Assembly (NCBI GenBank): GCA_040752395.1
Contig: JBFMHD010000200.1
Span: 1-5,113 of the forward strand
Direction: 5' to 3'
Length of the DNA: 5,113 nt
From: JBFMHD01 sp040752395 [NCBI: Candidatus Hydrogenedentota bacterium]
GTDB lineage: Bacteria; JBFMHD01
Part shown: piece by piece, positions 1-4,158 of the stretch
Position numbering within the stretch: the first letter of the stretch is position 1
Layout of the letters: every line of letters starts with the position of its first letter
Position numbers and translations under genes: made by a program
The notes under the pieces: generated by a model
Databases searched by the model: none
Seen by the model: only the letters and a program-made list of their open reading frames with translations
Told to the model about the DNA's origin: nothing

Positions 1-29
1 AATATATGAAAAACTAAAGATGATATGTT

Positions 30-92
30 GGCTTCAGGCTCCGGGCTTCGGGTTCCAGCCGGCTGTAGTCCGTAGCCCGTAGCCTGTAGCCC
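30..92. repeat. GC-rich heptamer array forming a long imperfect palindrome
   Basis: Two abutting arrays of 7-base units are visible. The left one (30-57) has four copies of roughly GGCTTCR and the right one (65-92) has four copies of roughly GTAGYCY, joined through the perfect palindrome AGCCGGCT at 57-64. The unit GTAGCCC read on the other strand is GGGCTAC, so the arrays are near-complements. Pairing 30-60 against 61-91 gives 25 Watson-Crick and 2 G-T pairs out of 31. The four mismatches (55/66, 48/73, 41/80, 34/87) fall exactly every seven bases. About 69% of bases are G or C, far above the surroundings. It lies directly upstream of the leader of the CBM48 gene and could extrude as a cruciform or fold in RNA. 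No U-tract follows, so it is not a standard terminator. Confidence 0.9.
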
Positions 93-94
93 GA

Positions 95-140
95 ATTATT
101 AGAGTTACAGCGTTTTTCAGAGGAGGAGATGAGCTATGTT
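95..140 (+). promoter_or_regulatory. Conserved leader/RBS element, copy 1 (CBM48 gene)
   Basis: ATTATTAGAGTTA (95-107), four variable bases, then GTTTTTCAGAGGAGG (112-126). The same 32-base stretch occurs on the minus strand before the amidohydrolase (3749-3780) with 29 of 32 bases identical. After a 4-base length difference, ATGAGCTATGTT (129-140) also matches the other copy at 11 of 12 bases. The element supplies the Shine-Dalgarno AGGAGG (121-126), nine bases before the ATG at 136. A second ATG at 129, in another frame, corresponds to the start codon used by the amidohydrolase. Whether a promoter lies inside ATTATTAGAGTTA is not clear. Confidence 0.8.
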
Positions 141-1536
141 AAAAAAATTATTAATAATTATCTTTATAGGAATTTTGTTTCCTGGTTTTATTTTTGCTCT
201 AACACTTCAATATAATAATCCTCAGGCAAAAAAAGTATATGTTGCAGGCGATTGGAATAACTGGAGTCCGGACGCTGATTTGATGACAAAAAATAGCCAG
301 GGGCTATGGGAGATAGATTTAGATTTAATGCCAGGAGAATACCAGTATAAATTTGTAGTTGATGGTGAATGGAAACAGGACCCGAGTAATCCTTTGAGTG
401 CAGATGATGGTTTTGGTGGCAAAAACTCTGTATTAAAAGTGGAGGGTAGTGATAGTAAAGAGAGTAGGTCTGCGGTTTCTACTTCAGGCACGACATTTAG
501 ATTTAAAGACGCCGAAGCCAAAACAGTTCATCTTGCAGGCGAGTTTAATAACTGGCTTGATAATGAACAGGGGAGAGTGAGGGGGAAGGAAGAATGGCTG
601 ATGAAGAAAGAGGGCGATGTATGGACAATAACAGTGGATTTAAGGCCTGGTACATATAAATACAAATATGTAATCAATGGTGGCGAGACGTGGAAGAAGG
701 ACCCGAATGCGCCTGATTCAGGTGACGATAATTCGCTTGTTACAGTTGGAGAGAAGAAAGGTACAATATCGACTCCACAAACAACAAAAAAGACTTTGTT
801 TGAAGTAAAAGCATCAAACGCAACAAAAGTAACATTAGCAGGTGAATTCAACAACTGGAATATGAATGAAATAGTAATGGAGAATGTTGAGGATGATGTA
901 TGGCGAAAAGAATTGGAGTTAAAACCCGGAACATATGAATATAAATTTATACAGGATGGTGATTGGGATATATTAAATAAAAGTAATAGAAAAATAACTG
1001 TAAAGCTTGAAACAGGAACCAGTGAAAAAACCGTATTTGAAGTCAAAGCACCTGGCGCTAAAAAGGTTACGCTCGCAGGTGAGTTCAATGACTGGAATAC
1101 TGATGAATTAGTGCTTGAGAATGTAGGTGGCGATATGTGGAGAATCGAGATTGAGCTGGAACCAGGGACATACAAATATAAGTTTTTACAGGATGGAGAC
1201 TGGGATATACTAAATAAAGATGATCGTAGAATTACTATTAGTGCTCAAACCCAAACCCAAACAAAAACTACTCCAGCCGCTAAAGGAATAACGATAACAT
1301 ATAATAACCCAATCGCAGATAAAGTATATATTGCGGGCGAGTTTAATAACTGGGACCCATTAAATGGTGAGATGACACAGGATGCTGATGGGAACTGGAG
1401 TATAGTTTTAGACCTGCCTCAGGGTAAATACCAGTATAAATTTGTAGTTGATGGTAAATGGATACAGGACCCGAAGTGCTCTGAGTCAGTTGATGATGGT
1501 TTTGGCGGCAAAAATTCAGTAATAATTATTGAGTAA
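136..1536 (+). CDS. Secreted protein of five tandem AMPK-beta/CBM48-type glycogen-binding modules
   Basis: The 466-residue product begins with a signal peptide: KK, then a hydrophobic core to about residue 20, with likely cleavage after A21 (motif FIFA). No lipobox or C-terminal anchor is seen, so export to the periplasm or medium is inferred. Five E-set modules follow at about 22-102, 118-206, 219-290, 298-369 and 385-466, each with the (D/E)(W/F)N(N/D)W and YKY/YKF...W signatures. In AMPK beta, W100, K126, W133 and N150 contact glycogen. Counterparts are W43/K72/W79/N97 in module 1, W140/K177/W186/N199 in module 2 and W406/K435/W442/N460 in module 5. Modules 3 and 4 keep the Trp and Lys residues but lack the DP...NS tail, so their binding is doubtful. 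Ser/Thr-rich linkers separate modules (TQTQTQTKTT near 371-379). No catalytic domain is present, so the likely role is binding alpha-glucan or acting as a scaffold. ATG 136 was chosen because it leads in frame into the signal peptide, nine bases after AGGAGG. Confidence 0.9.
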   Translation: MLKKLLIIIFIGILFPGFIFALTLQYNNPQAKKVYVAGDWNNWSPDADLMTKNSQGLWEIDLDLMPGEYQYKFVVDGEWKQDPSNPLSADDGFGGKNSVLKVEGSDSKESRSAVSTSGTTFRFKDAEAKTVHLAGEFNNWLDNEQGRVRGKEEWLMKKEGDVWTITVDLRPGTYKYKYVINGGETWKKDPNAPDSGDDNSLVTVGEKKGTISTPQTTKKTLFEVKASNATKVTLAGEFNNWNMNEIVMENVEDDVWRKELELKPGTYEYKFIQDGDWDILNKSNRKITVKLETGTSEKTVFEVKAPGAKKVTLAGEFNDWNTDELVLENVGGDMWRIEIELEPGTYKYKFLQDGDWDILNKDDRRITISAQTQTQTKTTPAAKGITITYNNPIADKVYIAGEFNNWDPLNGEMTQDADGNWSIVLDLPQGKYQYKFVVDGKWIQDPKCSESVDDGFGGKNSVIIIE

Positions 1537-1565
1537 ACCCACATACCTGTTGAAGTAGAGAAAAT

Positions 1566-1955
1566 ATGAAAAAAAAAGAGAAGGTCGATTATTGGGTAAA
1601 ATTAGCCGAAAATGATTGGACGGTTGCTCGTCATCTCTTTGAAAAGGAAGACTACCCATATGCTTTATTTTTTGGACACATGACAATTGAAAAAATATTA
1701 AAAGCGATATTTGTTAATAAATTCAATGAAGCACCGCCCCAGACTCATAGGTTAATTTACTTGGCAGAAAAGACAGGTTTAGAATTACAACCAGAAAGAT
1801 TAGAATTATTTGAGATTATTACTGATTTTAATATTGAAGCAAGATACCCTGACGAAAAATTTTTGTTCTATAAAAAGTGTACAAAGGAATTTACCCGGCA
1901 ATATATTGAAAAGATGGAGGAATTAAAGAGATGGCTGATGAAACAGATTCAATAA
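1566..1955 (+). CDS. HEPN domain protein, partner of adjacent MNT nucleotidyltransferase
   Basis: This 129-residue, mostly helical protein has the hallmarks of the HEPN family (PF05168-like). They are YWVKLAENDW near the N-terminus, the helix ALFFGHMTIEKILKAIF (33-49), PPQTHRLIYLAEKTGL (57-72) and FNIEARYPDEKF (88-99). Family members paired with MNT proteins act as toxins or RNA-binding partners; several are RNases that use an R-x4-6-H motif. I find no such motif: the histidines are H23, H38 and H61, and none sits 4-6 residues after an arginine. The RNase activity is therefore uncertain, and it may be a non-catalytic HEPN. The gene starts 29 bases after the CBM48 stop with only a weak purine-rich RBS (GTAGAG), so co-transcription or translational coupling with the upstream gene is possible. 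It overlaps the MNT gene by 25 bases. A role in toxin-antitoxin or defence is inferred from the pairing. Confidence 0.88.
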   Translation: MKKKEKVDYWVKLAENDWTVARHLFEKEDYPYALFFGHMTIEKILKAIFVNKFNEAPPQTHRLIYLAEKTGLELQPERLELFEIITDFNIEARYPDEKFLFYKKCTKEFTRQYIEKMEELKRWLMKQIQ

Positions 1956-2248
1956 TAGAGATAATAAAAAGATATATTGATGAACTAAATAAAAATAATA
2001 TAAAAATTGAAAAAGCAATAATATTTGGATCTTATGTTAAAGGAAATATAAAAGAGGAAAGTGATATCGATGTAGCTCTGATTTCATCTACATTTACAGG
2101 AGACAGATTTGAAGACAGGAGACTGATTGTCCCATTCAGAAGAAAGATAGATAGCAGAATCGAACCCATTCCATTTAAACCTGAGGAATTCTATAATGGT
2201 GGAATTCTTAGCGATGAAATAAGAAAGACCGGGAAAATAATTTTTTAA
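1931..2248 (+). CDS. Minimal nucleotidyltransferase (MNT), HEPN partner
   Basis: The 105-residue product carries the pol-beta-superfamily motif FGSYVKGNIKEESDIDVAL (32-50), which is GS-x10-DxD with G33, S34, D45 and D47. A likely third acidic residue is E78 in RIEPIPF. Length and motif match the minimal nucleotidyltransferases of HEPN/MNT modules. In characterised MntA-HepT systems the MNT protein neutralises the HEPN toxin by adding AMP; that activity is inferred here, not shown. The start is supported by GGAGGA at 1916-1921, nine bases before the ATG and inside the end of the HEPN gene. The 25-base overlap implies coupled translation. Gene order is HEPN first, MNT second. The gene ends 24 bases from the stop of the convergent amidohydrolase, with no obvious terminator hairpin between them. 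Confidence 0.9.
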   Translation: MADETDSIIEIIKRYIDELNKNNIKIEKAIIFGSYVKGNIKEESDIDVALISSTFTGDRFEDRRLIVPFRRKIDSRIEPIPFKPEEFYNGGILSDEIRKTGKIIF

Positions 2249-2272
2249 TATTTAATATAGTTTAAATCATAT

Positions 2273-3742
2273 CTATCTATGTGCGCCGGTACCACGAATC
2301 TCTTTTACAGTTTTTTTATAATTTATCATTAACTCTGATAATAATTGTACTTCTCGAAGTACAGCCTCTACATCAATTGTTTTAAATTGATAATTCTCTT
2401 TTAACACAATACCATTTGCTACAACATCTTTTATCTCATCGCCATTTGATGCAAAGATTAAGTTAGAGACAAAATTATCGATTCTACTCGGAGTAAGATT
2501 AGGTTTTGTTAAATCTATAATTATAAAATCAGCATCTTTCTCTTTCTCAAGTGAGCCAGAGTTAAGCCGCAAAAATTCTGCTGGAACAACAGTAATCATT
2601 TCCATCAGTTGTTGTGCAGGTAGAACTCTTGCATCTTTTAAGTATGCTTTTTGATAAGCTGAAGCCATTTTTGCAGCAATTAGAATGTTCTGGTTATCAG
2701 CTGAACCGGAGCCATCAGTTGATATGGCAACCGGGATACCCATAGCCATCATTTTAATAATAGGCGGCATACCCGAGCCAAGTATCGTATTAGCAAGCGG
2801 ATTATGTACAATTTTGGTTTTGGTCTTTAGCAGGATTTCGAGGTCATTATCTGTTGAATTGACCTGGTGGGCAAGAATGGTATTCTCATCAAGAAAACCG
2901 ATAGAATCAAAGTACTCCACAGGTGTCATTTTATATGTTTCAGTGAACCATTTTGTTGTATTCGGCTCTTCGCAAGAGTGACAGTGAATAAATGTTTTAT
3001 GTTTATCAGCCCATTTCTTCAGTAGTTTTAAGATTTTAGGACCATTTGAGAAATCCTGGTCAGGACCAGGCACAATCGAAAATCGTTTTTCAGCCCCAAA
3101 TTTTTCTAAATACTCATCAAGCCGTTTTACAGCTTGCTCTGGTTTATCAAGAACCCGTTTGTCATAGTTTCTATCCTGACTCCCAACAGCAACAATCATC
3201 GTTGTTCCCGCAATCTTATTAGCGTCAACTATCTCCTTAAGTCTATATTTGCTATAATTACAATGGTGGACAAGACTTGAGGTAATACCATAATATATAT
3301 CATCAACCCTGGCTTTTAAATACGTAATAAATTCAGGGCTTTTACCGAATATCTTGAAGAGCTCTTCTCTTTTTTCATTCATAAATCCTGTGAATACATT
3401 CACAGCATGGTCAAGCCATTCAGTAAGTGGTTCATTTTTTGCGAGACCGATAATCGGGCTTTCGTGGTCATGACCATGGGCTTTAACAAATCCAGGCATC
3501 AATACGCCATTATGCTTTACTAAATCATTGATAGAATATGATGATTTATAATTGATACCGATAATTTTCAGATTATGTGAATATTTTTTCAGTATTGTTT
3601 TACCGATATTTTCAGTATATTTACCAACCTCAATGATTGATCTCCCTTGTGATAAAACATAGCCATCTTCTATACATTTTGATAGCCCAAGTTTTTTACT
3701 TAATGGATATAAAAATTTAGCTCTTGCAAAAACATAACTCAT
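2273..3742 (-). CDS. Metal-dependent amidohydrolase, deaminase/chlorohydrolase (ATZ/TRZ-SsnA-like) type
   Basis: The 489-residue product is a TIM-barrel amidohydrolase with the expected elements in order. These are the strand-1 motif MPGFVKAHGHDH (82-93, metal ligands H89 and H91), the strand-5 motif FIHCHSCEE (251-259, H255 and E258 as HxxE), strand-6 H292 in AHQVN, and strand-8 D343 in AISTDGSGSADNQN. The C-terminal sandwich motif GSLEKEKDADFIIIDL is at 396-411. This ligand pattern (HxH, HxxE, H, D) is that of deaminases such as S-adenosylhomocysteine/methylthioadenosine deaminase, guanine deaminase and the SsnA group. A cytoplasmic hydrolase removing an amino group from an N-heterocycle or similar substrate is likely; the substrate cannot be read from the sequence. 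It is somewhat longer than the usual 430-450 residues. The start at 3742 lies six bases after AGGAGG (3749-3754) in the conserved leader. It appears monocistronic. Confidence 0.9.
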   Translation of the reverse strand: MSYVFARAKFLYPLSKKLGLSKCIEDGYVLSQGRSIIEVGKYTENIGKTILKKYSHNLKIIGINYKSSYSINDLVKHNGVLMPGFVKAHGHDHESPIIGLAKNEPLTEWLDHAVNVFTGFMNEKREELFKIFGKSPEFITYLKARVDDIYYGITSSLVHHCNYSKYRLKEIVDANKIAGTTMIVAVGSQDRNYDKRVLDKPEQAVKRLDEYLEKFGAEKRFSIVPGPDQDFSNGPKILKLLKKWADKHKTFIHCHSCEEPNTTKWFTETYKMTPVEYFDSIGFLDENTILAHQVNSTDNDLEILLKTKTKIVHNPLANTILGSGMPPIIKMMAMGIPVAISTDGSGSADNQNILIAAKMASAYQKAYLKDARVLPAQQLMEMITVVPAEFLRLNSGSLEKEKDADFIIIDLTKPNLTPSRIDNFVSNLIFASNGDEIKDVVANGIVLKENYQFKTIDVEAVLREVQLLSELMINYKKTVKEIRGTGAHR

Positions 3743-3780
3743 ACTAAACCTCCTCTGAAAAACATTCTAACTCTAATAAT
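3731..3780 (-). promoter_or_regulatory. Conserved leader/RBS element, copy 2 (amidohydrolase gene)
   Basis: Read on the minus strand, ATTATTAGAGTTA, then GAAT, then GTTTTTCAGAGGAGG spans 3780-3749. It differs from copy 1 only within the four-base variable patch (29 of 32 identical). After TTTAGT come the start codon and next codons ATGAGTTATGTT (3742-3731), which match copy 1 at 11 of 12 bases. Here the first ATG is the start, encoding MSYV. The identity reaches into the coding sequence and covers two unrelated genes, so common descent of the segment is more likely than convergence on an RBS. The orientation is opposite to copy 1. Confidence 0.8.
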
Positions 3781-3785
3781 ATCAA

Positions 3786-3820
3786 GTAGAAGCAAGAGAC
3801 AAGAGGCAAGAAGCAAGATA
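3786..3820. repeat. Purine-rich heptamer tandem array
   Basis: Five consecutive 7-base units follow CAAGARG: GTAGAAG (degenerate), CAAGAGA, CAAGAGG, CAAGAAG and CAAGATA. The array lies five bases outside leader copy 2, the same relative place as the GC-rich heptamers beside leader copy 1, although the two arrays share no unit sequence. It is not self-complementary. It resembles the short tandemly repeated (STRR-type) heptamers known from some bacterial genomes. Confidence 0.85.
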
Positions 3821-3860
3821 ACGCAATAACGCAATAACCCAAGAACCCAAGAACACAATA
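3821..3860. repeat. Octamer tandem array
   Basis: Five contiguous 8-base units: ACGCAATA, ACGCAATA, ACCCAAGA, ACCCAAGA, ACACAATA. It directly continues the heptamer array but with period eight. Units occur as identical neighbours, as expected from slippage or stepwise duplication. No coding role is apparent. Confidence 0.88.
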
Positions 3861-3906
3861 GTGTAAAGCGCAAAAAGCGTTCATTACAAATCCTATGTAA
3901 AAATTG

Positions 3907-3935: not shown

Positions 3936-3988
3936 GAAGATAATGTATAAAGTTTAGTGCAAATTGAATATTGAAAAGAAATAAAAAA

Positions 3989-4043
3989 GGGCATATTCTT
4001 CCTTAATTAAGTATAAAAACTCTTAAAAAGGAGGAACATACCC
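3989..4043 (+). promoter_or_regulatory. Stem-loop burying the RBS of the transposase-like remnant; probable IS end
   Basis: The arm GGGCATATTCTTCCTT (3989-4004) pairs with AAGGAGGAACATACCC (4028-4043): 13 Watson-Crick pairs, one G-T pair and two mismatches of 16, with a 23-base loop. The right arm contains the Shine-Dalgarno AGGAGG (4029-4034) of the reading frame starting at 4045. A transcript entering from outside would hide the RBS, while one starting inside the loop would not. This design is known from transposases such as those of IS10 and IS50, where it limits read-through expression. The GGG at 3989 may mark the element's left terminus. No matching right end is seen downstream. Confidence 0.6.
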
Positions 4044-4044
4044 T

Positions 4045-4158
4045 ATGAAAAGCATTAGTAAGCCGTTAACAGCCTTAACAGAATCAGACTTATGGAAAGA
4101 AGTCAAGGTCGAAGAAGGAGGATATCTGGAAAGTATCCCGGACATCGTATATTATTAA
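4045..4158 (+). pseudogene. 37-codon remnant, probably the N-terminus of an IS transposase
   Basis: The frame encodes MKSISKPLTALTESDLW followed by KEVKVEEGGYLESIPD and ends at TAA 4156-4158. It has an excellent RBS, AGGAGG ten bases before the ATG. The opening resembles the first residues of some mutator/IS256-like transposases (LTEXDLWKEV...EE), but this rests on pattern memory only. Full transposases are some ten times longer, and nothing downstream in any plus frame continues a catalytic domain, so it looks truncated within or just after residue 26. It could instead be a genuine small protein. The hairpin over its RBS favours an IS origin. Confidence 0.45.

What the first reader, a model, noticed from the sequence alone, without database searches (positions are those of the whole stretch)
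95..3780. Same leader/RBS cassette in front of two unrelated genes, in inverted orientation
The 32 bases ending in AGGAGG before the CBM48 gene (95-126) and before the amidohydrolase (3780-3749, minus strand) are identical at 29 positions, with all differences in one four-base patch. The match resumes across the start codons (ATGAGYTATGTT, 11 of 12). The two proteins are unrelated, so this is not gene duplication. Both copies are preceded by short tandem repeat arrays. Together this suggests a dispersed element that carries its own ribosome binding site and perhaps its own promoter. It would move, or be copied by recombination, into upstream regions as a ready-made expression leader.
Basis: partly seen in the sequence, partly recalled or inferred. 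Interest (0 to 1): 0.8.

Follow-up and report, generated by a model that had tools for sequence, protein, structure and literature searches.

The report
Reused ribosome-binding leader before two genes
Two unrelated genes in an uncultured bacterium begin with nearly the same 32-base stretch carrying the ribosome-binding site, most likely a small leader copied within the genome, but whether it moves could not be tested because the rest of that genome is not available.

Summary
Bases 95-126 (+) and 3780-3749 (-) match at 29 of 32 positions, all three differences lie in one 4-base patch, and no shuffle reached it. Five other possible starts in the window are at background (12-17 of 28). Two supports are weaker than stated. 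The start-codon match has p about 0.005, and 26 of 1,378 real start pairs reach it. The flanking heptamer arrays are ordinary: the closest relative found (amidohydrolase 66% identical) has 56 period-7 arrays in 576 kb sampled, some running up to the ribosome-binding site.

Mobility is untested. The window's genome is not held. The leader gave no exact match among 84,980 species genomes, and none with up to 3 mismatches in 149 genomes of that relative's phylum. Two of five relatives sampled hold low-copy leaders shared by unrelated genes, the clearer case being one genome.

Best reading: a low-copy, lineage-restricted leader reused by intragenomic copying, resembling 'putative mobile promoters'. 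A shared regulatory site remains a rival. New member of a known kind; interest modest.

The parts
20..94 (+). Heptamer array forming a long hairpin: GGCTTCG-type units followed by their near reverse complement, GTAGCCC units; last full unit ends 2 nt before the leader
   Evidence: I1; fold -38.5 kcal/mol, z -4.0; units read by eye
95..126 (+). Leader copy 1, ending in AGGAGG (121-126)
108..111 (+). Variable patch in copy 1 (CAGC)
   Evidence: sequence
129..140 (+). Start-region match ATGAGCTATGTT; the CBM48 gene starts at its second ATG (136)
   Evidence: weak significance
136..1536 (+). Gene for a 466-aa protein with a hydrophobic N-terminus (signal-peptide-like, by eye) and five CBM48/AMPK1_CBM modules
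2273..3742 (-). Gene for a 489-aa amidohydrolase of the chlorohydrolase/deaminase group
   Evidence: relatives 61-66% identical in 7 of 149 genomes
3731..3742 (-). Start-region match ATGAGTTATGTT; the amidohydrolase starts at its first ATG (3742)
3749..3780 (-). Leader copy 2, ending in AGGAGG (3754-3749)
3764..3767 (-). Variable patch in copy 2 (GAAT)
   Evidence: sequence
3788..3860 (-). Heptamer then octamer array upstream of copy 2, of another unit family than the left array; no stable fold
   Evidence: fold of 3781-3862, z 0.3

Best explanation
The 32-base match is a short 5' leader (13 fixed bases, a variable 4-base patch, then GTTTTTCAG and a strong AGGAGG) that was copied within the genome from in front of one gene to in front of another. 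The likely route is recombination or template switching between array-rich intergenic regions. It was kept because it supplies an efficient ribosome-binding site, possibly together with a promoter. It is one of the low-copy, lineage-restricted leaders shared by unrelated genes that also occur in relatives. Shown: the two near-identical copies, their position at two unrelated starts, their absence from the window's other possible starts, and comparable cases in relatives. Inferred: the direction and route of copying, and any effect on expression.
For: Match far beyond chance. The two proteins are unrelated. Five other possible starts in the window score 12-17 of 28 (random 60-mers: mean 12.7, maximum 18). 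In sampled relatives the 19 nt before the SD carry 0-0.6 bit per position, so a 28-base identity is not a general consensus. The amidohydrolase relatives, 7 of 7 genomes read by eye, have other leaders. Comparable cases: in G002 a ~41-nt leader with SD stands in front of three unrelated genes, and a fourth, shorter copy has no ATG within the 40 nt after it; it was found in 1 of 149 genomes. In G001 array plus AATTGARAGGAG stands before three unrelated genes. The window is array-rich like G001.
Against: Only two copies are visible and the genome is not held, so copy number, orthologous empty sites and direction are unknown. The four-base patch between perfectly conserved flanks (about 1.8% by chance) also fits selection on two half-sites. 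The G001 case is mostly shared array, with only 12 shared bases outside it, one of its three copies has a mismatch, and the backward control pattern also matched once in G001. G003 and G006 gave only one paralogue pair each, and G012 only two short matches of 16 to about 20 nt.
Confidence: 0.5

Rival explanations
1. The match is a conserved regulatory site: a regulator or small RNA recognises ATTATTAGAGTTA-n4-GTTTTTCAG at the leaders of a regulon to which both genes belong, and selection keeps the two flanks while the spacer drifts.
For: All three differences lie in one 4-base patch, flanked by 13 and 15 identical bases. The site ends exactly at the SD of both genes.
Against: Twenty-eight fixed bases are more than usual for one binding site (recalled). 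No Rfam family at gathering score. The leader does not fold better than shuffles (z 0.2 and -0.4). The two genes have no evident common role. Relatives of the amidohydrolase, 7 of 7, lack the site.
Confidence: 0.27
2. The two copies are the inverted ends of a 3.7-kb mobile or invertible segment (95-3780) that carries the CBM48, HEPN, nucleotidyltransferase and amidohydrolase genes.
For: The copies are inverted and flank the whole block.
Against: No transposase or recombinase among the four genes between them. No target-site duplication beyond one base next to the repeats (by eye). Both repeats end exactly at gene RBSs, which ends of a transposon have no reason to do.
Confidence: 0.1
3. Assembly or binning artefact, such as a chimeric contig joining two similar leaders.
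For: No whole genome is held for the window, which may be a metagenome record; repeats are common break points.
Against: The copies are 3.6 kb apart, differ at three bases and each leads into its own intact gene; an artefact would more likely give exact copies.
Confidence: 0.05
4. Chance similarity of two AT-rich leaders that share only the Shine-Dalgarno sequence.
For: The AGGAGG end and the start codons are expected to be alike.
Against: 0 of 200 shuffles and 0 of 60 shuffles; the best match to this leader among 465 SD-start contexts of five relatives is 19 of 28.
Confidence: 0.02

Closest known systems
Putative mobile promoters / promoter propagation and reuse (Matus-Garcia, Nijveen and van Passel 2012; van Passel, Nijveen and Wahl 2014)
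   Same: Near-identical upstream regions in front of unrelated genes in one genome, at low copy number
   Different: Here only two copies are seen, the shared part is short (32 nt) and ends in the SD, and no promoter was shown. The papers themselves are not held; I saw only citations and passages about them in PMC9208149, PMC8049555 and PMC4596501; the definition is recalled.
TAACTGA heptamer repeats of marine Beggiatoaceae (PMC4679880)
   Same: Heptamer direct repeats in intergenic regions close to start codons, without a pattern in gene function (passages read)
   Different: There the heptamers lie where the SD is expected (about 10% of repeat regions also hold an SD). Here the shared part is not an array and carries a strong SD; the unit families differ.
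Horizontal regulatory transfer (switching of upstream regions by recombination)
   Same: An upstream region changes without its gene
   Different: That is defined between strains at orthologous loci; here it is between unrelated genes of one genome and no strains are available. Term seen in a search listing only; otherwise recalled.
Invertible promoters and inverted-repeat phase-variation segments
   Same: Inverted copies around a gene block
   Different: No recombinase found among the window's four named genes and no evidence of inversion (family recalled)

Membership tests
Putative mobile promoter (reused upstream region) | Near-identical sequence upstream of two non-homologous genes | tested here: met
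Putative mobile promoter (reused upstream region) | Absent from the orthologous upstream region in relatives (gain by insertion or copying) | tested here: inconclusive
   0 of 7 amidohydrolase relatives carry it, but at 61-66% protein identity they are too distant to show an empty site
Putative mobile promoter (reused upstream region) | Contains an active promoter | tested here: inconclusive
   No sigma-70-like hit inside or just upstream of either leader; other promoter types are not covered and transcription was not measured
General consensus leader of the organism | Present before most genes | tested here: not met
   Within the window only: 2 of 7 possible starts carry it, 5 are at background (some of the five are unconfirmed ORFs); the genome is not held
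Transposon or MITE ends | Target-site duplication next to the inverted ends | tested here: not met
   No duplication beyond one base (by eye)
Transposon or MITE ends | Transposase in the element or elsewhere in the genome | tested here: inconclusive
   None among the four genes inside; the rest of the genome could not be searched
Structured RNA leader (riboswitch, attenuator) | Known family or stable fold | tested here: not met
   hits below cut-off near the arrays are miRNA or sRNA models far below their gathering scores
TAACTGA-type heptamer system | TAACTGA direct repeats next to the start codon | tested here: not met
   Units are GTAGCCC, AGAAGCA and ATAACCCA

The most novel reading that the evidence does not exclude
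In this lineage heptamer arrays and SD-bearing leaders form one dispersal system: arrays of differing unit families are exchanged at a fixed edge 2 nt upstream of a leader that is copied as a ready-made expression module, so that intergenic regions are assembled from interchangeable array blocks and leaders.
Probability: 0.12. Interest if true: 0.6.

Novelty: new member of a known kind. Interest (0 to 1): 0.3.

Why it matters
If leaders with ribosome-binding sites are copied between genes inside a genome, a newly acquired or silent gene can gain expression in one step. The case is modest, but the array-rich relatives (G001 above all) offer whole genomes in which such reuse and its link to heptamer arrays can be counted.

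Tried and rejected
Finding more copies: exact pattern scans of viral contigs and genome contigs (a 23-base form of the motif), a pattern search of G001 alone and of 149 genomes, and blastn of the whole window against plasmids and phages. The two hits of the looser viral pattern lie inside coding sequence and are taken as chance. Finding the organism by protein: the amidohydrolase gave one locus in genome contigs, neither protein any confirmed relative in viral contigs; within the 149 genomes the CBM48 protein has only domain-level matches, in 31 of them (best by E-value: 46% over 83 residues). So the window's genome or a close relative was not reached, and its phylum is not established.

Rejected: gene duplication (unrelated proteins); structured RNA; universal leader within the window. 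A heptamer-array pattern hit two viral contigs; the parts fetched have GC 0.50 and 0.58 and no leader within 9 mismatches, so no lead. Literature: searches returned no paper; some searches gave listings, from which passages of four papers were read; the key papers on mobile promoters are not held.

Limits of the counts: one search counts include the same gene entered twice through neighbouring ATGs (3 of 4 pairs in G001, 3 of 9 in G002, 2 of 3 in G003 at 26 of 32 or better) and paralogues; I disregarded those by eye, and one of the nine G002 pairs was not printed. Samples: G001 576 kb of about 5 Mb, G002 400 kb of 3 Mb, G003 400 kb of 2.3 Mb, G006 280 kb of 7.4 Mb, G012 120 kb of 5.6 Mb. Of the five G001 pairs, one looks like SD plus AT-rich chance; most of the rest look array-derived. 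G002 there also has a paralogue pair and one 16-base match before apparently unrelated genes. In G012 two neighbouring, apparently unrelated genes share about 20 nt of AT-rich repeat plus SD, and another pair 16 nt. One search lists arrays near starts (47 printed rows of 113 arrays, 17 inside frames) without a baseline, so no enrichment is claimed. In one search the backward control pattern matched once in G001, against three forward-pattern matches.

Full report
What was checked. The window (5113 bases, GC 33.5%) holds a CBM48-repeat protein gene (136-1536 +), a HEPN gene (1566-1955 +), an overlapping nucleotidyltransferase gene (1931-2248 +) and an amidohydrolase gene (2273-3742 -). The claimed pair is the second longest inverted repeat listed for the window, and the longest that is not a self-palindrome (I2), and the best inverted match in my own scan. 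Thirteen bases, a 4-base patch and 15 bases align without a gap; only the patch differs (CAGC against GAAT). No shuffle gave such a match within three mismatches (0 of 200), and none of 60 shuffles reached the score (26 against a maximum of 22).

What is weaker than stated. The further match at the start codons is real in letters, but needs a 4-base gap, has p about 0.005 under random sequence, and is reached by 26 of 1,378 pairs of real start contexts. The two genes use different ATGs of the matching stretch, so the protein starts are not shared. If the stretch is homologous, that argues for copying at DNA level; the statistics do not force it. The arrays next to both copies are of different unit families. 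The last full unit ends two bases before the leader on the left (GTAGCCC-GA-leader) and, reading the units by eye, also on the right (CTACTTG-AT-leader).

Is it a general leader? Five other possible starts in the window match the leader at 12-17 of 28 positions, as do random 60-mers (mean 12.7, maximum 18). In samples of five genomes of the phylum that holds the nearest amidohydrolase relatives found, 465 SD-start contexts (154, 81, 87, 99 and 44) have little information upstream of the SD (0-0.6 bit per position), and the best match to the leader is 19 of 28.

Where else does it occur? No whole genome is held for the window. Exact scans found no copy in viral contigs or genome contigs; a looser viral scan found two hits inside coding sequence. 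The nearest relative of the amidohydrolase found (66%) is in a MAG labelled 'Bacillota bacterium isolate UR.bin48', here G001; seven of 149 genomes of its phylum have an orthologue at 61-66%. None of these seven carries the leader upstream, and none of the 149 genomes holds it with up to 3 mismatches. These relatives are too distant to serve as empty sites.

What do relatives show? In sampled stretches, G001 has 56 period-7 arrays in 576 kb (9.7 per 100 kb), G012 4.2 per 100 kb, and G002, G003 and G006 0, 0.25 and 0. In G001 some arrays run up to the SD. So arrays beside a gene's leader are normal there and do not mark a special element. Shared leaders do occur. Three G001 genes, which I read by eye as panB, an aminoacyl-tRNA synthetase and a TPR-type protein, share array plus AATTGARAGGAG; this is the weaker case, as most of the sharing is array and the backward control pattern also matched once. 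In G002 three unrelated genes share about 41 nt up to the start codon, with a fourth, shorter copy elsewhere that has no ATG in the 40 nt after it; none of the other 148 genomes has it. In one search, G003 and G006 gave one paralogue pair each, and G012 two short matches, one of about 20 nt between two neighbouring genes.

Mechanism. The most economical account is that a short leader with a strong SD was copied within this genome and kept. It rests on the near identity, the unrelated genes, the absence of a general consensus and the comparable low-copy cases in relatives. The main rival is a shared regulatory site; the clustering of differences in one patch favours it somewhat (about 1.8% under random placement, by hand). 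The inverted arrangement alone does not make the copies ends of a transposon: no transposase gene lies between them, no duplication beyond one base flanks them, and both end at ribosome-binding sites. A promoter inside was not found with a sigma-70 scan, which does not exclude other types.

Comparison. It resembles what has been called putative mobile promoters or promoter reuse; that literature was seen only through citing passages, as the papers are not held. Membership in the strict sense is open, because gain relative to an empty orthologous site could not be tested. The Beggiatoaceae TAACTGA repeats (PMC4679880, passages) are the nearest described heptamer system near start codons that I met, but differ in unit and in lying where the SD is expected.

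Verdict. A real and statistically solid repeat, probably one small instance of leader reuse; the mobile-element reading is not shown. Interest 0.3.

Noticed in passing
window 20-94: Heptamer array that turns into its near reverse complement, giving a hairpin of mostly 6-bp helices with a mismatch at every seventh base (-38.5 kcal/mol, z -4.0).
   Followed up: partly
window 3986-4158: A hairpin of about 60 nt (fold of 3985-4050, z -4.8) that pairs the SD of a 37-codon ORF (4045-4158); the ORF has no NCBIfam match and no relative in 149 genomes at E 0.01. It may be an IS remnant or a leader peptide.
   Followed up: partly
window 1566-2248: HEPN and MNT-type nucleotidyltransferase pair, overlapping by 25 bases; a toxin-antitoxin-like module, but the MntA model is matched below its cut-off (33.3 of 60 bits).
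   Followed up: no
L114 and L115 (hit at 1501, read on the - strand) and L116 (739, + strand), all G002: Shared leader before three unrelated genes (one HsdS-like and one AAA-ATPase-like by eye). Two overlapping, mutually exclusive hairpins of nearly equal energy (-10.3 and -10.0 kcal/mol in different copies), one of which pairs the SD: a possible translational switch.
   Followed up: partly
G001 sampled contigs, e.g. L052 18330-18530 and L069 7150-7450: Intergenic regions built of blocks of several heptamer families (GTGAGAC, ATCACGC, CTCAACC, TTTATAG, AGCTGAT), rare or absent in the G002, G003 and G006 samples.
   Followed up: partly
window 136-1536: Protein with five CBM48/AMPK1_CBM modules behind a signal-peptide-like N-terminus and no catalytic domain found by Pfam.
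   Followed up: no
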